NCBI GenBank assembly: GCA_905250025.1
Contig: CAJNOJ010000268.1
Span: forward strand, 62,001 to 126,000
Length of the DNA: 64,000 nucleotides
Source: Adineta ricciae
Taxonomy: Eukaryota; Rotifera; Eurotatoria; Adinetida; Adinetidae
Direction of reading: 5' to 3'
The notes beneath the pieces were generated by a model, which was not told the DNA's origin, made no database searches, and was given only the letters and a program-made list of their open reading frames with translations. Positions 15,781 through 57,338 of this stretch are shown in pieces. The translations under genes were made by a program, and so were the position numbers. Position 1 is the first letter of the stretch. Each line of letters starts with the position of its first letter.

Positions 15781-16243
15781 TCGAATGATGATCAAAATAA
15801 CTAGAAGCAAACGAAAAGCACAGTAATCGATCAGTGATCGGCTCGTTCTTTCCTACATTACATGAGTCTATCCTATCGTAGTTTTCATCATTGGAGAAAT
15901 CATCGAACCAATCCCTTGAAGGATGGTTAATGTACAGAAATCTCTTGATGACATCTACCGGTTTCTTCAACGACTGCAAACGATGGAATGAATGTAACTG
16001 CAGCAGGAGATGCTGTTTTTACTATAGAAGATTTCAGAAGTAAACTACAACGAGTATCTTATAACTGATTGAGAAACGACGACAATGATATAAGATTAGA
16101 AAAGATAATTATAAAAGTATACTGGGTATTGATTACTATTTGAGTGATACAAAGTGCAAGTTTTGTCAAATAATTGAATGACATATATATATAACGAGTA
16201 AGTCTATCTTATCCTAAGTAAACTTTATTGAAATCGTTTGCAG
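15781..16243. other. Divergent intergenic region (DnaJ / GH71)
   Basis: Short AT-rich region between divergent genes. A minus-strand frame at 15674-15979 overlaps the DnaJ presequence exon in another frame and has no support. A TATA-like run lies at 16184-16194. Confidence 0.5.
16184..16194 (+). promoter_or_regulatory. TATA-like run upstream of GH71
   Basis: TATATATATAA begins 60 bp before the GH71 start codon. Simple TA repeats are common in this AT-rich DNA, so function is uncertain. Confidence 0.3.
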
Positions 16244-17941
16244 ATGATCGATGTTAGAATTTCATATATAGTATTTACGACCGTGTACTATAGTATCATC
16301 GTTTCGGCGAGATACAATGATCCCAATTGTGGATGGGCTGATCAACCTTATCGTGCTGTTGGTGATTGGGCTGTTGATGCTGGATCTAGTTCGAATTGGA
16401 ATCCTGCTGAGTCAAAAGGTCTGATGCATGATACGAATGTTCAATCGTGTGAATATGCTGTTGATGTTCATGGACTTCAACCGAATAAATTGTACTACTG
16501 GAAAGTAACGGTTGGAAACTCCTGGGATGTTCACTGGGGTTGTGATGGTCGAGGTGGCCCAGACTGTAAATTCTCAACGTCTACTGGTTCAGTTCGTCTG
16601 AAAATTGTTGGCTCTTTCGCTTATCCTCTTACGGCCGAAGTGATCAATTCACCAACGAATCCTTCGTCTAGTACTTCATCACCAGGTACGTCATCGGGAT
16701 TAGGTAAAAAAGTCTTTGCTCATTATATGGTTGGATTCGCTTATCCATCGGATCAAAACTTCTTTGATGGTCAAATTAAGAAAGCGAAAGCAGCTGGTAT
16801 TGATGGATTTGCTTTAAATGTTGGTATTGATAGCTGGCAACCAGATCGTGTTGCTAAAGCACTTGCTGCCGCTAAGAATAACGGTGATTTCTCGATGTTC
16901 ATCTCATTTGACATGTCTTCTCTTACCTTTGACAACGGTGTACTCGCTCGTTTTCATTTTGCTGCTAGCCATCCTAATTACTTCAAAGTCAATGGTCGAC
17001 CTCTCTATTCGACATTTGCTGGTGAACATCAAGATTTATTTTGGTCAGGTTGGAAAGCTTCCAGCGGATTGAATCCGTACTTCTGTCCAAGTTGGCCAAA
17101 CTATCCAACTGCTAACTTATTACAATCGCATCCTGTTGCTGATTGCATTTTTACTTGGAATGCTTGGCCTGCCGGTAATTCCGGTCCGGGCGCCCATTTC
17201 GACACATCTGGTGATAAAAATTTATTAGCTAGTGCCAGGGCAACAGGTAAAACATACATGGCTCCAGTTGCTCCCTGGTTTTACACTCGTGTTTGGGGCT
17301 CCGGATGGAGTAAAAATTGGATCTATGGCTCAGAAAAACTTCTTCCAGAAAGATGGCAACAGATCGTGTCTCTACAACCAGATTTTGTTCAAATTATCAC
17401 ATGGAATGATTACTCCGAATCTTCTTATGTATGTTCAATTAGCAGTGATTTACCTACAGACATGGGCGGTATTAGTGACATGATCAACATTCCACAGCCC
17501 ATGCATCATGACGCTTGGTTAGAATTATCCAAACATTACATTCAATGGTATAAAAATAACGCACGACCTACTGTCACTCAAGATCAATTCTACTGGTGGT
17601 ATCGTGTTCATCCTAAGAATAATGTCAATGGTGAGACGCCTCAATATCGTAATGATGCACACGACTGTGTTGTCGTACATTCCATTGTTAAAAACACGAA
17701 ACCCAATGGAGGATTCTACACTGTATTGGTTGATTTGAATGGTGTAAAACATAGTTATAGAATTACACAACTCGAACAGACTGAATGCCTTCCGTATCCA
17801 GCGAATCCAGGTTACGTGAGCGTTTCATTAGTCGGTCCCGATGGTAAAATCTGGTGGGCCGAAGGCAAGAATACTCCGCAACAAAATAGTGGCAATAATT
17901 TCAACGCTTTTACCAACATGTACACCTTTCCAAGTCCATGA
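16244..17941 (+). CDS. Secreted glycoside hydrolase family 71 (alpha-1,3-glucanase/mutanase), HGT candidate
   Basis: GH71 enzymes hydrolyse alpha-1,3-glucan, a fungal cell-wall polymer, and the family is mainly fungal. The single exon encodes 565 residues: signal peptide (residues 1 to about 22), an N-terminal beta-sandwich-like module (about 23-125, with NWNPAE, YYWKVTVGNSWD and Cys pairs; resembling starch/pullulanase-type binding modules by inference), a Ser/Thr-rich linker (about 132-147), and the GH71 domain from KKVFAHYMVGFAYP through AAGIDGFALNVG, GRPLYSTFAGE, DCIFTWNAWP and the hallmark ITWNDYSESSY (about 384-394). A C-terminal module follows (YWWYRVHPK ...). The ATG at 16244 is chosen because an AG acceptor precedes it directly. 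It has no introns while its neighbours are full of them, and two polyA signals follow. A role in digesting or resisting fungi is inferred. Confidence in the family is high. Confidence 0.9.
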   Translation: MIDVRISYIVFTTVYYSIIVSARYNDPNCGWADQPYRAVGDWAVDAGSSSNWNPAESKGLMHDTNVQSCEYAVDVHGLQPNKLYYWKVTVGNSWDVHWGCDGRGGPDCKFSTSTGSVRLKIVGSFAYPLTAEVINSPTNPSSSTSSPGTSSGLGKKVFAHYMVGFAYPSDQNFFDGQIKKAKAAGIDGFALNVGIDSWQPDRVAKALAAAKNNGDFSMFISFDMSSLTFDNGVLARFHFAASHPNYFKVNGRPLYSTFAGEHQDLFWSGWKASSGLNPYFCPSWPNYPTANLLQSHPVADCIFTWNAWPAGNSGPGAHFDTSGDKNLLASARATGKTYMAPVAPWFYTRVWGSGWSKNWIYGSEKLLPERWQQIVSLQPDFVQIITWNDYSESSYVCSISSDLPTDMGGISDMINIPQPMHHDAWLELSKHYIQWYKNNARPTVTQDQFYWWYRVHPKNNVNGETPQYRNDAHDCVVVHSIVKNTKPNGGFYTVLVDLNGVKHSYRITQLEQTECLPYPANPGYVSVSLVGPDGKIWWAEGKNTPQQNSGNNFNAFTNMYTFPSP

Positions 17942-27091: not shown

Positions 27092-27294
27092 TAGATTTGA
27101 ATCTGAATATATCATATCTCAATAGTTCGCCGAAAATGACATTGATTTGCAAACACACATGGTTAAAACCCATACTGTGTTGCCCTGTTCCATGATAAAT
27201 ATTATCTGTCCTCTTTGATTGCACGGCAGCCATATTTAACCATCGTCATCATTTCAGATGATAATGGAAAAATGTGTGTCATAAGATAAAAATA

Positions 27295-28659
27295 ATGGCA
27301 ACGACGTTGAATATTTATCCTTCGGTTTCTACGACTTGCGGTGGTCGCATAGAACTAGCTGGCTTGGATCTATGGCGAATGGCGCGTATCGATAATGTTT
27401 TTGTGTATCCATCGGTAATTCAAGTCGATCGATTTCAAAAAGCGCTTGCCGATACTCTTTGCCAATGGCCTTATGTTGTTGGTCGGTCTCGTATCGATCT
27501 AAACGAACGTTACTTTATCGAAATGTGTGACAAACCCATTCCAGTAACAGTAAACAAGAATTACGATCTAGTTAAATGGCCATTCAATTCCAATGTCATC
27601 ATTGACTTTTACGAAAATCCTCTTTCAACATATCTTGACGAAGTTCAAGTGTCAAAATTGTTCGTTAATACAGAAGATGAACCGTTGGTACGACTGAAAT
27701 TAACCGAGATTGTCCAAAGCAATGAATGGGTATTAGGTATAAGTTGGGCACATGAACTTGGCGATGCAGCATCGTGTTTGAGCTTTCTCAACACAATTTC
27801 TTGTTTATATCAACAGAAAGAACCATTAATACCGGTTCCTTTGTTTGAACGATGTTTGTGGAAAGAAAATGAAGCTGACCCATCGTTCTTGCCTTTCATG
27901 AAACACTTCCGAGATGCGAAAACTTTCGATGAAATGTGGAAGAAATTCATGGTCGACCAAGAAGCATACGATCAAGTTAATTTATGTTTTTCCGGCGCTC
28001 AGCTTAAACATTTACACGATTTAGCTCCTCAAAATTATCAACTAACAATTCATGACGTATTAATCGCATACATCATACTCACATTGAATACGTCCTGTTA
28101 TTACAATGATGATCGACACCGTGTCCTACGTACGAACACATCGATCAACTATCGTGGAGTATCTGATCGAATTGCTCCAAAGAGTCTAATTGCTAATGCC
28201 GTATTAATGATGTTATCAGAGAATATCGAAGATCCATATTCATTATTGAGTATTGCGAAAACGATTCGTCAATCGATCGTGAAATCACGTGATGAAACAT
28301 TCCTTCAACGTTGGTTAGCGACTGCTGACGATGCAATGAGGAAAATGATGCATAATGATTATCTTGCTGACTTAGGATTTGTTCCGAATGAAATCATCGT
28401 CAATTCAAATTTCAGATACGACTGGGCAAATTTAGTGAATTTTGGTTATACAGATCAATGTCGGTTTCATACAGGATGGTCGGGCGCATTTTACTTGCGT
28501 ATATTTCGTTTGAATCCTATCCTAAATGGAGATGCATGGCTGACAAGAGATCGAAACGGAGCAGAAGTCGTTTTTCGAATAGAAAAACATTTGAAAGACA
28601 AGTTTATGAACGCGATCAAGCAAGACATGGAGGATAACTTTGCACGAATAAAAACCTAG
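27295..28659 (+). CDS. BAHD-family acyltransferase, HGT candidate
   Basis: BAHD enzymes transfer acyl groups from acyl-CoA to alcohols or amines in plant and fungal secondary metabolism; they are not a usual animal family. Single exon, 454 residues. The catalytic HxxxD is seen in SWAHELGDAAS (about residues 148-158), and the strand before it (EIVQSNEWVLGI) fits. The N-terminal domain starts LAGLDLWRMARIDNVFVYPS and contains QWPYVVGR, a region typical of BAHD proteins (PLAGR). The second domain has NTSINYRGVSDRI, equivalent to the usual VDxRxR stretch. The structural DFGWG motif is changed to NFGYTDQ, so it is a divergent member. The start is the first ATG; GTG/TTG codons upstream were ignored. 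It has no introns, unlike its neighbours. Substrate unknown. Confidence 0.8.
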   Translation: MATTLNIYPSVSTTCGGRIELAGLDLWRMARIDNVFVYPSVIQVDRFQKALADTLCQWPYVVGRSRIDLNERYFIEMCDKPIPVTVNKNYDLVKWPFNSNVIIDFYENPLSTYLDEVQVSKLFVNTEDEPLVRLKLTEIVQSNEWVLGISWAHELGDAASCLSFLNTISCLYQQKEPLIPVPLFERCLWKENEADPSFLPFMKHFRDAKTFDEMWKKFMVDQEAYDQVNLCFSGAQLKHLHDLAPQNYQLTIHDVLIAYIILTLNTSCYYNDDRHRVLRTNTSINYRGVSDRIAPKSLIANAVLMMLSENIEDPYSLLSIAKTIRQSIVKSRDETFLQRWLATADDAMRKMMHNDYLADLGFVPNEIIVNSNFRYDWANLVNFGYTDQCRFHTGWSGAFYLRIFRLNPILNGDAWLTRDRNGAEVVFRIEKHLKDKFMNAIKQDMEDNFARIKT

Positions 28660-31155: not shown

Positions 31156-32421
31156 TTAAGAACAACCACACTCCACTACACGCATATTTTCATGCTTTTT
31201 TAAAACTAGATTCGGTCCATCGTAATATAAAAGTATCGTAGGCGAAAATCGTTTCGGTTTACAACACGGTGCAGGAATTGTTCGTGGATATTTTTGATGA
31301 AGGAGATTTTGGATCAGGAAATAAGTGTCCATATTCGATTGACTCTGGCATTTCCCCGAGCAAACATTCATTTCGTACGAACTTGGTTCGAGAATCCACG
31401 AAGACCATTGTAAATCAGAAAACGATGTACGTAATGGACGAACTTGGCAATAGGATGGTTCATCAGGATAGGTGACTAATTGATTATCATAGAATGACGA
31501 TAATTGTCGACGTGACATCGAAGAAGACGATTGGCGGAAATGCAAAGTTAGAAAGCCAGACGAGAGCAAAGCGAATGTTTGTTTTGTGTGATTTACTCGA
31601 AGATAAAATGTCAGTGGGAACGATGTGACATATTGTGTAAGATTAATCTTCAGCCAGTTGGAGTTCGTTCGAAAGGATGCTTTTAAGGAAATATGAAATG
31701 ACGAAGAAACAATATCAAGTGTAGAAAATTCGTGAATTGGTAGAATAAGTTCTGCGTACGATAGATGTTCAAGAGAAGCGTTGTATTGAAAATGGTATGT
31801 GATGTTCGACGATGAAGAATGACGTTGATTTGGTAAACTAATTATAAAATCTGATGTGTCTGATAGATAGAAATTTGAATGTTCGTTATCATCATGTCGT
31901 TTCCGTCGATAAGAACCTTGCTCGTCGTAGATTTGTCGGTACATCGAACGCATGAATGTATGCATAGCTTTTGTTGAACGAGATGGATTCGGATTTGGAT
32001 GATTGGATGGGAGATCAAGGAATTCCTTGTATGCGGACATACGATGATGTTCTTCTGGAGATAAGGTAGTGGTGGTAGTCGCTAAAATTATTTTATGGGA
32101 AGAGTTGAATCGAGAATTGCAAAATGACATACCAGGAGTTGAATGTTTAAGAATTGTTTTTAACGATTGTGGATTAGTAGTCGGCGTTGAGGATGGCCGA
32201 TGTTGATTCGCAGTGAAAAGAACTATTGCGATGATAATAATGATACAGATCGTGGTGAATAATGTTATAATTACAAAAAGACTCAATTTCGATGAAGACA
32301 CTGTTGTTTGTTCTGTATGTTCCATTCCAATTTTTAAAATATGAATTTCGAACAAGAATTCTTCTCCTCTTTCCGTTCTTCTTCTTCTTTCATCGTATCC
32401 AATAAGAAAAACGAATTGCAT
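31156..32421 (-). CDS. TGF-beta/BMP superfamily ligand, with N-terminal signal anchor
   Basis: Cystine-knot growth factor precursor. The C-terminus carries the seven-Cys pattern: YCQVRPLRTSF, DLQWSSWILEPSSYEM, NVCSGKCQSQ, the paired Cys of IPAPCCKPKRFS, ILLYYDGPNLVLKKHENM and the final VVECGCS. A prodomain of about 240 residues precedes it, with a dibasic RRKR site early in it and SRRQ close to the mature region as possible cleavage points. The N-terminus has a strong hydrophobic segment (LFVIITLFTTICIIIIIAIV) about 45 residues from the first ATG, or about 15 from a second ATG at 32325, so it looks like a signal anchor rather than a cleaved signal peptide. A 51-nt in-frame segment (GTATGTC ... 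TTTTAG, around 32080-32130) is probably an intron. Assignment to a specific BMP/GDF group is not possible by eye. Confidence 0.85.
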   Translation of the reverse strand: MQFVFLIGYDERRRRTERGEEFLFEIHILKIGMEHTEQTTVSSSKLSLFVIITLFTTICIIIIIAIVLFTANQHRPSSTPTTNPQSLKTILKHSTPGMSFCNSRFNSSHKIILATTTTTLSPEEHHRMSAYKEFLDLPSNHPNPNPSRSTKAMHTFMRSMYRQIYDEQGSYRRKRHDDNEHSNFYLSDTSDFIISLPNQRHSSSSNITYHFQYNASLEHLSYAELILPIHEFSTLDIVSSSFHISLKASFRTNSNWLKINLTQYVTSFPLTFYLRVNHTKQTFALLSSGFLTLHFRQSSSSMSRRQLSSFYDNQLVTYPDEPSYCQVRPLRTSFSDLQWSSWILEPSSYEMNVCSGKCQSQSNMDTYFLIQNLLHQKYPRTIPAPCCKPKRFSPTILLYYDGPNLVLKKHENMRVVECGCS

Positions 32422-52260: not shown

Positions 52261-52682
52261 TGTATGTTTATTCTATTGTCTTTAATTTTCTGTCTTTTAA
52301 AACGTATGTTTAATTCTCATGTCATTTGTCACTGTTGTTGTTGATGGTTCTTGTTCATTTTTCATCTTTTTCCTTTCTTCTCTTTCGTTTCGTTTCTTTA
52401 TTATTCTCAGTGTGTCAACAACTGTTGTCGATCTTCCTTCTTCTCTGTTTCTTCTTTTTTTCATTGTTCTACTTATTTCTTTTTTCTTCTTTTTATATAT
52501 TATTATTATTATTATTCTATTCTCATTTGCACACTATCGTTCGCGCATCACGTCTTCATTTCATTAGTAAGAGAAGAAGCACGCGACAGAAAACATATAT
52601 ATGTATATGTATATACACAAAAGCAAAAATAAACTTCAACTAGTTTTTTTTGAACTCTAGAGTAACAAAACTGCTTGCACAG
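52261..52682. other. Intergenic TTC/TAT-rich low-complexity stretch
   Basis: Pyrimidine-rich DNA with a TTA/TAT microsatellite near 52500. Open frames here are low-complexity Phe/Ser artefacts. A splice acceptor (CACAG) lies directly before the ATG10 start. Confidence 0.6.
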
Positions 52683-53153
52683 ATGATGACATTGACATTA
52701 GAGGAATTCAATCAATGTATATCTGATCTCTATGAACAATCACAACAGATTCATGACCGTTGGCAATTACTAAAGACCTCCAAAGGCTCGTATTTAGTTT
52801 ATTCATTCGTTGATCAAGATCACTTGAAACATGAGTTTCATATTGTCTATAGCGAGAGCTACGCCGTACCTGTTCTCTATTTTAATATTAGTCATTTGGA
52901 TGGCTCGTTATTATCATTGGATGACGTTTGGCAATTATTCACTCATAAGAAAACTTCCAAGATGTACGAAACGATTACACAGCAAGAACATTCAATTCTT
53001 CATCGACCTTTTTTCGTTCTTCATCCTTGTCACACGGAAAACGTTTTAAAACAAGTCGCTGATCAACCGATAAAGAAAAAATTCCTCTTTTGGCTATCTA
53101 TCTATGGTCAATCAGTGGGTTTACCTTTATCAGTTCATTATGCAATCGATTGA
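52683..53153 (+). CDS. ATG10: Autophagy E2-like enzyme ATG10
   Basis: ATG10 is the E2-like enzyme that conjugates ATG12 to ATG5. Single exon, 156 residues from the ATG at 52683 (MMTLTLEEFNQCISDLYEQS), which sits right behind an AG acceptor. Key stretches: WQLLKTSKGSYLVYSF, LKHEFHIVYSESYAVPVLYF, NISHLDGSLLSLDDVWQLF, YETITQQEHSILHRPFFVLH with the catalytic Cys in LHPCHTENV, and FWLSIYGQSVGLPLSVHYA. The TQQEHP-like and HPC motifs are diagnostic of the family. Upstream frame extension to 52650 uses TTG and is not needed. Third ubiquitin-like-pathway gene in a row on this strand after CDC34 and FBXW7. Confidence 0.92.
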   Translation: MMTLTLEEFNQCISDLYEQSQQIHDRWQLLKTSKGSYLVYSFVDQDHLKHEFHIVYSESYAVPVLYFNISHLDGSLLSLDDVWQLFTHKKTSKMYETITQQEHSILHRPFFVLHPCHTENVLKQVADQPIKKKFLFWLSIYGQSVGLPLSVHYAID

Positions 53154-53619
53154 ATTTGTATGTGAAATTTCTATAAAGTGTATATCTATTTTTATGAATT
53201 TCAAAAGATTTGTTCAGTGAATATGCAGCGAAAAGATGATACCTTTTACTTCTCGAACACAAGAGAAGATCTCTTTCGTCGTTTTTGAGTTTAGACATGA
53301 TTTTATAACTTGTTATTTTCGTTTGCAGTGTAGTGAATCATCAAAACACTCGTATTAGTACTGCGAAAAATGATTTGATTCGAAACGATACACTATGACA
53401 TAGATGAATAACAACATATCTTCTATTTATTTTGCCTTGAATATGCTTTCAACTATCATCAACTTATCTTTCTTCTTATCTAAATCGGATGTCAGCGAAT
53501 CGAAATGATAAGTAACAAGTAGGAAATCTCTGTTGACACGCTAACTTTACTTTGTAAAAATCAAATCTTTTTATTCCGAATGAGTACACGAAATACTTCA
53601 CAAACAAACAAGATAATGT
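53154..53619. other. Intergenic between convergent 3' ends
   Basis: AT-rich, no supported gene. Confidence 0.5.
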
Positions 53620-54015
53620 CTATTCTTGGTCAATCATCTCGTTATCGTAATCACCATTACGATCAGGACCAGTTTCCATTCTATTTGGATCTCGTGAACG
53701 ATTTCGATCGCGATTTGTATTAATTTTACTTTCGCTGATAGGATCCCGACTTTCAAATCCATCACCGATTTCATAATTATCAAATGCTTTCCAATCGTGA
53801 ATGTCTGGGCAAAATCGACGCGTGCCGGTATTGCGAAACAACGGAAAGGATGGTTCACATCGTTCCTCTAAAGAAAATATTCACTTTTAAAGACATTAAT
53901 TAGGAGTAGCCCATTACCGTAATCTTCTCGTGCTTCACGTTTTTGTTCCTCGCATTTTGTTGAACCCGGATGAAAGAACGATCGTTTCAGAAAGCGATTC
54001 GCATAGACCGATTCT
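53620..54015 (-). CDS. Secreted-peptide cassette C (two exons, no signal exon of its own)
   Basis: Two minus-strand exons homologous to cassettes A and B. The first (about 54015-53930) reads ESVYANRFLKRSFFHPGSTK and CEEQKREAREDY and is phase 1 at both ends; the second (about 53868-53620) reads ERCEPSFPLFRNTGTRRFCP, DIHDWKAFDNYEIGDG and a long polar tail (TNRDRNRSRDPNRMETGPDR ... NEMIDQE) before a TAG. No ATG with a signal peptide can be spliced in phase from the 230 bp upstream. It may be an alternative 3' end of the gene whose signal exon is at 55243, or a gene whose first exon was lost. Function unknown. Confidence 0.6.
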
Positions 54016-54246
54016 AAAATCAGTTAGAAGAACGAGAATAGTACGCTTGATTTCGAATTCATATTGAATAGGATAACAAAGAACACGTTTACAATCTAGA
54101 ATAATCAAAGAGACAGGAACGAACAGTAAATTAGTGCGCTGACGGCATAATCTGGATTAGGCGAGAACAGAAAACGATGTGTGAAAGAAGATAGATGATT
54201 ATTCTTGAAAAATAGATACAGTATATAGAGGAAAAAACGACATTGG

Positions 54247-54643
54247 TCATTCATCATCATCAACACTTCGTTTGCCTCCAACTCCAGCGGTGATGATTCC
54301 AGCGACAACACCACCGATGATTTTTTCCATACTAACATTTTGTGGAATCAATTTACCCAACGTATCAAGATCAAAACCACCTCCCTCTCCGATTTCATAG
54401 GCATCTAGCTCTTTCCATTCGTTAATATCTGGACAGAAGCGGTTGTTTTTACGATCCCGTTGCCATGGAATTGATGGTTCACATCGTTCTTCTACAGTGA
54501 TCGCAAAATAAGCAGTTAATTAAGAAGCACGCTCATACCGTAGTCTTCTCGGGCTTCACGCTTTTGTTCTTCACATGCAGTCACTCCGGGATGGAAAATG
54601 CCACGTTTGCGACGGAGAAATTCATTGGATGTAGAACGAGCTA
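54247..54643 (-). CDS. Secreted-peptide cassette B (two exons, no signal exon of its own)
   Basis: Two exons: about 54643-54543 (ARSTSNEFLRRKRGIFHPG, VTACEEQKREAREDY) and about 54491-54247 (EERCEPSIPWQRDRKNNRFC, PDINEWKELDAYEIGEGGGF, then VSMEKIIGGVVAGIITAGVG and a short acidic end KRSVDDDE). The internal junction is at the same codon and phase as in cassette C. RRKR may be a proprotein-processing site. A Gly/Ile/Val-rich segment in the tail is amphipathic or membrane-seeking. The first exon is phase 1, matching the donor of the signal exon at 55157-55243. There is no ATG between this exon and cassette A. Confidence 0.6.
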
Positions 54644-54808
54644 TAGTATACAGAACAAAACAGTCAATCAAACAGACTATTCGAAAGTTCGACCAGAAAA
54701 AAAGAAGAAGCAAAATCAATCGGGGGGATGACTAATGCGTGTCACTGTCGAGATATATATTGATGAAATTCGTATAGGAAATATGACAGAAAAAGCAGTG
54801 TTAATTAG

Positions 54809-55243
54809 TTATTGAACTTCATATTTGATGAACGTGGGCCAATTTTTTAATTCTGGACAATATCGTTTTTTCGACGCATTCTTATTTGTTAATCTGATAG
54901 GAACTGATGGTTCACAACGGGATTCGTAAGCTGCTTTGGCTTCACGCTTTTGTTCTTCGCATTTGGTTTTGAATTGTTTGTAAACCCGTTTGTCGACAAG
55001 AAACGAAAGAGCATCGATTTCGTCTATAGACACACACACACACATAGCATCGAAGCGATTAAAGTAAAAGAAATATTCGCAAACGAAAAACGAAACAAAA
55101 TCAACGAATTCTTTTCCCTACAAGTGAAATGAATATTTACCTTGTTCAAAACTATTTTCCTCAGCTGCTTGGGCATATCTCTCGTTGAGAATCATCATCA
55201 AAAGAACAGTACAAACGAGAATAGCAATTGAAAAGGCTTTCAT
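54809..55243 (-). CDS. Small secreted cysteine peptide, cassette A with signal-peptide exon
   Basis: Complete two-exon gene. The first exon (55243 to about 55142) encodes a signal peptide, MKAFSIAILVCTVLLMMILN, followed by AQAAEENSFEQ. The second encodes the mature part: DEIDALSFLVDKRVYKQFKT, KCEEQKREAKAAYESRCEPS, VPIRLTNKNASKKRYCPELK, NWPTFIKYEVQ, stop at 54809. Three Cys (KCEE, RCEP, RYCP). Unlike cassettes B and C, there is no intron between the REAK and RCEP motifs. About 110 residues. No known family is recognised; secreted, probably extracellular. Confidence 0.75.
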
Positions 55244-55593
55244 TTTGTTTCTCTAAAAACAGATTTAGCTTTCTTATGAAAACGAAACACATATCGACAG
55301 ACCCGTACTTCTTGCTACTTGCTATATGTATATGAATAGGATTCGACTGATGTAAATACTTTTCAATCGATATTGCGAAGAGAAAAGACAAGTGATGATT
55401 ATTGATATAAGTGTTGACAAATATATCTAGATAGTATCTATTTCAACCGATGAATAATCATCCGTACTTGAAAGACAAAACGATTGTATCATTGCTTTAA
55501 GGAGATAATCTCGTCGAGAAGACAAGTAGAAGAAATAGAAGAACTTTTTTGTTAGCCAGTATCATTCGGTATTCATACATACAATATTGCATC

Positions 55594-56052
55594 ATGAATA
55601 AAATCTTATTTGGTCTCGTTTGCGCTCTATTCATCATCGCCTTTGTGCATATTGCTCATGCTGATGATGAAAATGATTTCGGTATGTGGAGATTTTTGCA
55701 GATTTTCGTCTGATGTTCGGTTCTATTCTAGAGGCACGAGATGCACAACAATTCTTACAAAAACGTCTTTTTGGTATCCCGTTTCCCCGTGAACAACGTC
55801 GAGAAGCGAAAGAAAAATATGAAGAACGGTAAATTTTTATTGAAGAATTCTCTGATAGGCAACTGAATATACGCACTATTTCAGATGCGAACGAGCTTTA
55901 GGTATCAACAAAGTTACCGGTCTTCAACGATGGTGCCCAAAACTTGAGGTAAAATCAAAAAGCCATTTTTTTCTCAGAAATCTGTGTTTTACTTTGAATA
56001 GGAATGGGACGAATGGCGTAAAGCGACCAGCAGCGATAAACGACGTGGTTAA
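55594..56052 (+). CDS. Small secreted cysteine peptide, divergent member (D)
   Basis: Four exons splice to a protein of about 105 residues: signal peptide MNKILFGLVCALFIIAFVHI and AHADDENDF; EARDAQQFLQKRLFGIPFPR with EQRREAKEKYEE; RCERALGINKVTGLQRWCPK; EWDEWRKATSSDKRRG. It shares with cassettes A-C the acidic [DE]EN-x-F after the signal peptide, FL-x-x-[KR], EQ-[KR]-REA-[KR], YE-x-RCE and an aromatic-CP, and the intron at YE/RCE matches cassettes B and C. The first Cys (CEEQ) is replaced, leaving two. Divergently oriented, 350 bp from the signal exon of cassette A. AATAAA at 56125-56130. Confidence 0.75.
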
Positions 56053-56124
56053 GAGACAATCGCAGCATGTTTCATCTTTATACAAAAAACTTTTTATCTA
56101 ATAAGCTTTTCGGAATAATTGAGA

Positions 56125-56130
56125 AATAAA
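56125..56130 (+). terminator. PolyA signal of peptide gene D
   Basis: AATAAA 73 bp after the stop codon. Confidence 0.5.
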
Positions 56131-56273
56131 TTTATCCCAGTCCTTATCCTCAATATTTCTTTGTTCACTTGTGGTAAAAAGAAGACACGCATAGTTTCAT
56201 ATTTAATCTATCGTCTGTCCAGCATATGAAATAGTTTATTCGTTTATGAAATAAAGACTACAAAAAATCTGTG

Positions 56274-56765
56274 TCAACTATTGTTTAGTTTTCTACGATG
56301 ATCGTCAGTGATACATTTTGATTTCAATCTACCACGTGAACTCTGGTATGAATATTCATAGTACCATGATTGATATTTTCGATTCGAATCTTTCAACTGT
56401 GTGACTTGTTGTTTTGGTTTGAAATGTTTTGGCAATAGCGAATAAGAAACGTGTGGCTGAGCAATCATTTGATCAACTACATTGATCATCTGTTGATTAC
56501 CAGCATACGTTTGATCTCTACACTTAAATGTACAAAATAAATCATCTGACTGATTGTTCGAAGGATGAAATAACTGCAAAAAGAGTACTCGGCTGCGTAC
56601 TTGATTGCTCTGAGCTCGACCGATGGATAGAATCGCTGAATCGAAATCTATAGCATTTCCTTCTTTTTCATCCTTTACGTTCGCTTTTTCTGTGATTGTA
56701 CTCGTATGTGATGGTAGTTGAGATTCACAATATGACATAGTCTGAGTACTTGCATCTACCATCAT
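56274..56765 (-). CDS. Hypothetical protein, 163 aa
   Basis: Single open frame with an ATG at 56765. Contains TMSYCESQLPSHTSTITEKA, FDSAILSIGRAQSNQ, LFLQLFHPSNNQSDDLFCTF, KCRDQTYAGNQQMINVVDQM, KHFKPKQQVTQLKDSNRKY and a basic Tyr-rich end (WYYEYSYQSSRGRLKSKC). No signal peptide and no recognised domain. It may be a short disordered protein; length and composition give only moderate support for coding. Confidence 0.45.
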   Translation of the reverse strand: MMVDASTQTMSYCESQLPSHTSTITEKANVKDEKEGNAIDFDSAILSIGRAQSNQVRSRVLFLQLFHPSNNQSDDLFCTFKCRDQTYAGNQQMINVVDQMIAQPHVSYSLLPKHFKPKQQVTQLKDSNRKYQSWYYEYSYQSSRGRLKSKCITDDHRRKLNNS

Positions 56766-57338
56766 TCAGAGCTCGAATATCTAAACAAGTTAGGTTTGAA
56801 TCAAATAAATAAATTTGTGAAAAAGAATTGATTTATATACGAAACTCTTGCGAAAATTAGTGAAATGTTGAGTAACATTTCTTTTTCTAAACCATGAATG
56901 AAAAACAGGTATTGCATGCTGTTGAGTAAGTATAGCCTACGCTTACGTTAACAAATATGAAAAGGTATATGCAAAACAGTGTTAGTCGAATTATAGAGAA
57001 AGAAGTCGTTTGTTTTCGGTTCGTTTTGCTCGATCATCAATCGCTCTACAGACTACGAAAAACAATGTAATCTGAGAATGATAGTAATTTTGGTGGCTTT
57101 ACATAGCTTTCTTACAGCCTTAAAAAATAGTGATGATATATAGGTAGAGGCGGCACCAGGATTTTCGCCTTAGAAGGCCCACTCTCTAGTGTCTTATGTA
57201 TTTGTAAGAAAATCGTCATTTTTTTTGAAAGTTTTGAAAAATCTGGGGGCTTAGTCTCCTGTAACCCACCCTTGGCACCACCACTATATATAATAGAGTA
57301 ATGGAATGAATTCTAGTATATCTGAGAATATCATCAAT
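56766..57338. other. Intergenic, with a TIR element remnant
   Basis: No gene. Holds the hAT-like short inverted-repeat element at 57145-57286. Confidence 0.5.
57145..57286. mobile_element. Small hAT-like MITE remnant
   Basis: Left end TAGAGGCGGCACCAGG and right end CCTTGGCACCACCACTA are imperfect inverted repeats (TAG-x-GG-Y-GG-Y-R-CCA). The GGCGGC-type end resembles hAT transposon termini, and TATATA lies on both sides as a possible worn target duplication. About 140 bp, no coding capacity. Confidence 0.4.

What the first reader, a model, noticed from the sequence alone, without database searches (positions are those of the whole stretch)
53620..56052. Unrecognised family of small secreted cysteine peptides in a compact cluster
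Four related units (three on minus, one divergent on plus) share a core: FL-x-x-[KR]; E-Q-[KR]-R-E-A-[KR]; Y-E-x-R-C-E; then 10-15 variable residues, an aromatic residue and C-P; then W. Units A and D have clear signal peptides. Tails differ completely (acidic, Gly/Ile-rich, Asn/Arg/Asp-rich, Lys-rich). A conserved core with diversified tails suggests a secreted effector, hormone-like or matrix peptide family. I know of no named domain with this pattern.
Basis: partly seen in the sequence, partly recalled or inferred. Interest (0 to 1): 0.75.

Follow-up and report, generated by a model that had tools for sequence, protein, structure and literature searches.

The report
Secreted peptide family sharing one start
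A small animal genome carries an unnamed family of short, probably secreted peptides, three of which seem to share one signal segment by alternative splicing, and whose leader somewhat resembles the docking tag of the vitamin K carboxylase, an enzyme for which no classical targets are described in fruit flies.

Summary
In detail: four related units lie where stated, and at least ten more core copies sit elsewhere in the genome (14 cores on 8 contigs). The core matches nothing above cut-off in Pfam, NCBIfam or PDB sequences. Two things were missed. First, minus-strand units B and C have no signal exon of their own. Unit A's signal exon has a phase-1 donor and the core exons have phase-1 acceptors; a second copy of the cluster (contig C9) also has one signal exon for two cassettes. 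B and C cores are under purifying selection (dN/dS 0.15 and 0.14), so they are probably translated; one signal exon spliced to alternative cassettes is the simplest reading. Second, the leader motif AxxFL (12 of 14) resembles the vitamin K carboxylase recognition propeptide and is followed by Glu-rich ExxEExC (10 of 14). The genome has an animal carboxylase (37 of 40 named residues identical), and no canonical Gla domain was found. The similarity tests are mixed: strong for paralog C80, at chance for all four window units with clotting-type propeptides alone. Secreted processed family: well supported; shared exon: likely; gamma-carboxylation: about one in three.

The parts
55141..55243 (-). 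Signal exon of the minus-strand gene (MKAFSIAILVCTVLLMMILNERYAQAAEENSFEQ, phase-1 donor GTAAAT); proposed to be shared by cassettes A, B and C
   Evidence: C9 counterpart C9:320097-320001
54809..55023 (-). Cassette A: single terminal exon, core without long tail
54539..54640 (-). Cassette B, first exon (ARSTSNEFLRRKRGIFHPGVTACEEQKREAREDY), phase-1 acceptor, no start codon of its own found
54247..54491 (-). Cassette B, terminal exon, Gly/Ile-rich then acidic tail
53918..54013 (-). Cassette C, first exon (ESVYANRFLKRSFFHPGSTKCEEQKREAREDY), phase-1 acceptor, no start codon of its own found
53620..53867 (-). Cassette C, terminal exon, Asn/Arg/Asp-rich tail; the only minus-strand AATAAA in 53450-55300 follows at 53575
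55594..55681 (+). Unit D exon 1, signal peptide, phase-1 donor
55732..55827 (+). Unit D exon 2, leader motif DAQQFLQKR and first half of core
55884..55948 (+). Unit D exon 3, CERALGINKVTGLQRWCPKLE
56002..56052 (+). Unit D exon 4, tail and stop; AATAAA at 56125

Best explanation
This is a family of small secreted precursor peptides: signal peptide, a short acidic leader ending in A-x-x-F-L-x-[KR], cleavage at the basic residues, then a mature Glu-rich segment with an invariant Cys pair (C ... C-P-x-[LI]-x-x-W) and, in some, a variable tail. On the minus strand one signal exon (55141-55243) is spliced to one of three alternative terminal cassettes (A, B or C), so that one gene makes three different peptides; D is a separate divergent gene. 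The leader most plausibly docks a processing or modifying enzyme; the leading specific candidate is the vitamin K-dependent gamma-glutamyl carboxylase, which would turn some of the conserved glutamates into calcium-binding Gla. Shown: the family, exon phases, no start exon found in the tested spans, purifying selection, presence of the carboxylase. Inferred: secretion, splicing choice, cleavage, disulphide, and (about 1 in 3) carboxylation. The confidence below is for secreted processed family plus shared signal exon, not for carboxylation.
For: 14 cores on 8 contigs with 10 invariant columns. The signal-to-core junction is in phase 1 in 13 of 14 spliced models made by script (C152 was not scripted). 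No ATG-led stretch of 40 bases or more ending at a phase-1 GT in 3 of 3 tested spans: A stop to B, B stop to C, and B' stop to C' in C9; the A-to-B span (167 bases) holds no ATG at all. The C9 copy repeats the layout: divergent D', one signal exon, cassettes B' and C'. dN/dS against C9: 0.137 for C core (69 codons), 0.150 for B core (66), 0.093 for D (98); Fisher p 3e-8, 1e-6, 6e-16. A basic residue pair or an R follows FL within five residues in 14 of 14. Animal carboxylase: E 3.7e-83 to human GGCX in PDB; 37 of 40 residues named in PMC12589487 identical in the C58 copy; VKOR domain over cut-off at 4 loci.
Against: No transcript data. Only C is followed by AATAAA on the minus strand, so A and B would need a weaker signal or the common one after C. 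Without demanding an ATG, hydrophobic open stretches ending at a GT exist in all three spans, and paralog C61 seems to begin with a 2-codon micro-exon (read by eye), so a hidden start for C in the window is not fully excluded. The C9 flanks that were looked at are not shared with the window. The fold model is poor (mean pLDDT 60.4). Signal peptides were judged by hydrophobicity and eye, with no dedicated predictor.
Confidence: 0.6

Rival explanations
1. Same secreted family, but the AxxFL leader is an ordinary propeptide helix (prohormone, matrix or defence peptide) and no vitamin K chemistry is involved.
For: A profile of 7 clotting-type propeptides leaves the four window units at chance (best site at AxxFL in 0 of 4; 23 to 142 of 166 random stretches do as well), and in 6 of 11 tested members the best site is not at AxxFL. 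hhalign against 8 prepro-Gla sequences: 13 of 300 column shuffles do as well and the reversed profile nearly ties. No canonical Gla domain was found in the genome, though that search had no positive control.
Against: With UCMA added to the profile the best site falls at AxxFL in 11 of 11 members, 5 of 11 beyond the 95% level of random stretches; without UCMA, paralog C80 (LDHETASNFLKR beside factor IX LDHENANKILNR) beats all 166 random stretches and 999 of 1000 own shuffles. An apparently intact animal carboxylase is kept.
Confidence: 0.5
2. B and C are genes of their own whose first exons were missed (a micro-exon start, non-ATG start, or a distant exon).
For: Paralog C61 seems to have a 2-codon first exon; a hydrophobic open stretch ending at GTAAAC lies upstream of C at 54092.
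Against: No ATG between A's stop and B; 138 bases and one ATG between B' and C' in C9, with no ATG-led candidate; spans of 138-232 bases leave little room for promoter, leader and signal exon.
Confidence: 0.2
3. B and C are decaying duplicates that are not translated.
For: No start or signal of their own was found.
Against: Strong purifying selection on both cores against the C9 copies (Fisher); open frames and splice sites kept in both copies.
Confidence: 0.06
4. The family is a true invertebrate branch of UCMA/Gla-rich protein.
For: hhalign P 0.0049 and 0 of 300 column shuffles reach it, over DASNFLKR.
Against: Only 11-16 columns align, at probability 7%; Smith-Waterman scores of eight cores against UCMA are reached by 1.5 to 22% of shuffles; the UCMA Pfam model finds nothing in the genome, though that control rang nowhere.
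Confidence: 0.07

Closest known systems
UCMA / Gla-rich protein (Pfam PF17085; sequence recalled)
   Same: Signal peptide, acidic stretch, DASNFLKR-like leader before a basic cleavage site, short Glu/Arg-rich mature part, Trp near the end
   Different: The recalled UCMA has no Cys pair in its mature part and a longer Glu-rich region; only the leader aligns; reported as apparently absent from invertebrates (PMC13204790, one passage)
Propeptide + Gla domain of clotting-type proteins (PF00594)
   Same: A-x-x-[hydrophobic]-L-x-R-like leader and E-x-x-E-E-x-C in 10 of 14
   Different: Upstream Phe is 7 residues before the Ala position in 8 of 14, F or Y is 5 before in 3, never F at the canonical 6; PF00594 does not match
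Conus Gla peptides (recalled, and mentioned in PMC12112360 passages)
   Same: Small secreted invertebrate precursors with a recognition propeptide, in principle
   Different: No sequence comparison made
Calcitonin/CGRP-type genes (recalled)
   Same: Common leader exon joined to alternative terminal exons giving different secreted peptides
   Different: Unrelated sequence, as far as I recall; here the cassettes are paralogous copies of one core

Membership tests
Vitamin K-dependent Gla proteins | Recognition propeptide F-x5-A-x3-L-x4-R (spacing derived from residue numbers in a PMC4537219 passage) | tested here: inconclusive
   A-x3-L in 12 of 14; F spacing 7 in 8 of 14, F or Y at 5 in 3 of 14, F at 6 in none; profile scores mixed
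Vitamin K-dependent Gla proteins | Gla domain PF00594 | tested here: not met
   No match for any member at E<=10; genome search best 16.8 bits at an unrelated place, below the 27-bit cut-off, without a positive control
Vitamin K-dependent Gla proteins | Glu-rich stretch with E-x2-[ERK]-E-x-C (recalled PROSITE core) | tested here: met
   10 of 14; missing in A, C61, C152 and C80D
Vitamin K-dependent Gla proteins | Host encodes GGCX and VKOR | tested here: met
Vitamin K-dependent Gla proteins | Gla residues in the mature protein | not testable with these tools
   needs mass spectrometry
UCMA / Gla-rich protein | Match to PF17085 over its length | tested here: not met
   no hit; searches align only the leader; genome search empty but its control rang nowhere
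One gene with shared signal exon and alternative terminal cassettes | One start/signal exon with phase matching all cassettes | tested here: met
One gene with shared signal exon and alternative terminal cassettes | Transcripts joining the exon to each cassette | not testable with these tools
   no RNA data

The most novel reading that the evidence does not exclude
A protostome family of vitamin K-dependent Gla peptides, made by a gene that splices one signal exon (which also carries the outer Phe of the carboxylase docking site, 7 residues before the Ala position, Ser in B, in all five exon-cassette pairs of C268 and C9) to interchangeable peptide cassettes; these would be natural substrates of a conserved invertebrate carboxylase that otherwise has none known here.
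Probability: 0.3. Interest if true: 0.8.

Novelty: new variant of a known kind. Interest (0 to 1): 0.5.

Why it matters
Drosophila has an active gamma-glutamyl carboxylase that recognises human propeptides, yet no classical Gla proteins are described there (PMC12112360, passages). A compact family of candidate substrates in another invertebrate-type genome makes that question directly testable. The cassette layout would also be a neat natural case of one signal exon serving several peptides.

Tried and rejected
Known domain: Pfam, NCBIfam and PDB sequence searches gave nothing above cut-off. The weak names (Ctf4_C, Anthrone_oxy, Glyco_hydro_67C, Njmu-R1, FSAP_sig_propep, CDC45, Conotoxin, DUF3899) are all at E 0.03 or worse, and are rejected.

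UCMA orthology: considered from the ASNFLKR match and rejected as unproven. Canonical Gla domain: rejected; the hit on C415 reads by eye as an unrelated protein.

Trans-splicing alone to B or C: rejected because neither has an in-frame ATG between its acceptor and its core (sequence).

Results dropped: the B-tail dN/dS is misaligned and not used; the C-tail value (0.52, 39 codons) is weak; the signal-exon value (0.87, 32 codons) shows little constraint. One search is superseded because its UCMA row was out of register. No fold search was run because the model is of low confidence. Weak genome hits C85, C21, C67 and C29 (E 0.25-0.39) were not counted as members: the matched stretch of C85 was translated and lacks the CE...CP core; the other three were not read.

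Full report
What is there. The window is contig C268:62001-126000 of a 130-Mb, 1033-contig genome. It holds animal genes such as a TGF-beta ligand, and the carboxylase found elsewhere in the genome is of the animal kind. The four units lie exactly at 53620-56052. Their spliced models are: A, signal exon 55243-55141 and one terminal exon; B, two exons; C, two exons; D (plus strand), four exons.

Family size. Searches of the whole genome found ten more cores: B', C' and D' on C9, a D copy on C546, a pair on C110/C84, two on C80, and a pair on C61/C152. The count is a lower bound by the tool's own terms. In the alignment of all 14 cores, ten columns are invariant: F-L, E, Y-E, C, R, C-P, W. No match above cut-off exists in Pfam, NCBIfam or PDB sequences. 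On C80 the minus-strand gene starts at 92164 and a divergent plus-strand member at 94050, about 1.9 kb apart, so a head-to-head layout is seen at three places: C268, C9 and C80.

Shared signal exon. B and C have no signal peptide. Scans for an ATG-led open stretch of at least 40 bases ending at a phase-1 GT gave 0 candidates between A's stop and B, 0 between B's stop and C, and 0 between B' stop and C' in C9, while A's own upstream region contains the clear exon 55243-55141 among 13 mechanical candidates. The A-to-B span has no ATG at all. The signal-to-core junction is in phase 1 in 13 of 14 models made by script (C152 not scripted). The C9 copy shows the same economy: one signal exon at C9:320097-320001 and two cassettes. 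B and C cores are under strong purifying selection between the two clusters: dN/dS 0.150 (66 codons) and 0.137 (69 codons), D 0.093 (98 codons), with Fisher p of 1e-6, 3e-8 and 6e-16. Sequences kept as protein are presumably translated, so a shared exon is the simplest account. Against this: no RNA data; only C is followed by AATAAA; if an ATG is not demanded, hydrophobic open stretches ending at a GT exist in all three spans; and C61 seems to start with a 2-codon exon (read by eye), so a hidden start for C is not fully excluded. The low-coordinate flank of the C9 cluster carries two genes that read by eye as bHLH factors, not the ATG10-like gene; these two have no match in the window, and the window's 163-aa ORF has no convincing match in the C9 stretches read (315700-322480), so I call C9 a second copy of the cluster and do not claim wider synteny.

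The leader. In 12 of 14 members the core begins A-x-x-F-L, and a basic pair or an R follows in 14 of 14, as expected for a cleaved propeptide. The residues compared with known recognition sequences in PMC4537219 (passages) are spaced F-x5-A-x3-L-x4-R. In the cryo-EM work the factor IX Phe31 and Leu41 contact the enzyme (PMC12589487, text parts 1 and 2 of 3). The A-x3-L spacing is the same here, but an upstream Phe lies 7 residues before the Ala position in 8 of 14, an F or Y 5 before in 3, and an F at 6 in none. Downstream, E-x-x-E-E-x-C occurs in 10 of 14.

The enzyme. The genome has an animal GGCX on C58 and C68, whose first part (217 residues given, 213 aligned) matches human GGCX in PDB at E 3.7e-83. 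Of 40 residues named in the cryo-EM paper, 37 are identical in the C58 copy, among them the catalytic K218, K217, the Glu-pocket residues N159, H160 and Y395, and the propeptide-contact Y425; the three changes are V254L, G258C and I532V. VKOR domains pass the cut-off at four loci. No canonical Gla domain passes, but that search rang in none of its 14 control genomes, so it has no positive control. The enzyme therefore has no recognised substrate here so far.

Tests of the resemblance, for and against. Profile-profile comparison with 8 vertebrate prepro-Gla sequences aligns ASNFLKR with ANKILNR and YEERC with MEEKC (P 0.011), but 13 of 300 column shuffles do as well and the reversed profile scores 16.8 against 17.3, so it is not convincing. 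Against UCMA the leader alone aligns (P 0.0049, probability 7.2; 0 of 300 shuffles). Scored with 7 clotting-type propeptides only, 5 of 11 members have their best site at AxxFL (C80 12.8, C9B 9.0, C110 5.7, C61 5.3, C9C 4.7; UCMA itself, a known vitamin K-dependent protein, scores 5.7), and 6 of 11, including all four window units, do not stand out from 166 random stretches. The 11 tested leave out C84, C152 and C546D, close relatives of tested members. With UCMA added, the best site is at AxxFL in 11 of 11, of which C9B, C9C, C110, C80 and C61 (5 of 11) pass the 95% level of the random stretches. Carboxylation is therefore a lead, not a result.

Structure. AlphaFold2 on cassette A with 18 rows gave mean pLDDT 60.4 and pTM 0.38, with helices at residues 2-9 (leader), 11-36 (Glu-rich segment) and 62-69. 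This is too weak to search or to judge the Cys pair.

Literature (9 searches). Carboxylase + rotifer + vitamin K-dependent returned 2 papers, both on fish (listing only); bdelloid + alternative splicing + signal peptide returned 3 unrelated papers (listing only); the 10 listed papers of a search for bdelloid secreted peptide families do not contain the word bdelloid (listing only). UCMA is reported as apparently absent from invertebrates (PMC13204790, one passage). [quoted passage not shown] The library is partial, so novelty in print is not proven.

Verdict. A real and, as far as these searches go, undescribed family of secreted, probably cleaved peptides (about 0.85), with a signal exon shared by alternative cassettes (about 0.65) and possibly vitamin K-dependent carboxylation (about 0.3).

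Noticed in passing
window 55493-57321 and C546:9017-11078 (L002): C546 holds a 91% copy that begins abruptly at window 55493, between A and D, and runs at least to 57321, where the fetched locus ends; it covers D and the 163-aa ORF at 56274-56765. D versus this copy shows dN/dS 0.95 (5 synonymous, 17 nonsynonymous), as if one copy were relaxed.
   Followed up: partly
cores in window, C9, C80, C110, C61: The intron inside the core sits at different places in paralogs: after the Y of YEER (B, C), inside ER|C (D), just before CP (C80, C110, C84), and is missing in A and C61.
   Followed up: partly
window 16238-17941 (+): 567-aa open frame with a Glycosyl hydrolase 71 domain (E 3.7e-95), a family I recall mainly from fungi; possible horizontally acquired gene.
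   Followed up: no
window 27274-28659 (+): 461-aa frame of the Transferase family PF02458 (E 2.7e-9).
   Followed up: no
window 31156-32421 (-): TGF-beta family ligand (PF00019, E 1.9e-25).
   Followed up: no
window 52650-53153 (+): Autophagy E2-like (ATG3/ATG10) active-site domain (PF03987, E 1.9e-28) next to the cluster.
   Followed up: no
C9:315700-318714 (L082, L027): Two neighbouring genes that read by eye as bHLH transcription factors flank the second cluster and have no match in the window.
   Followed up: partly
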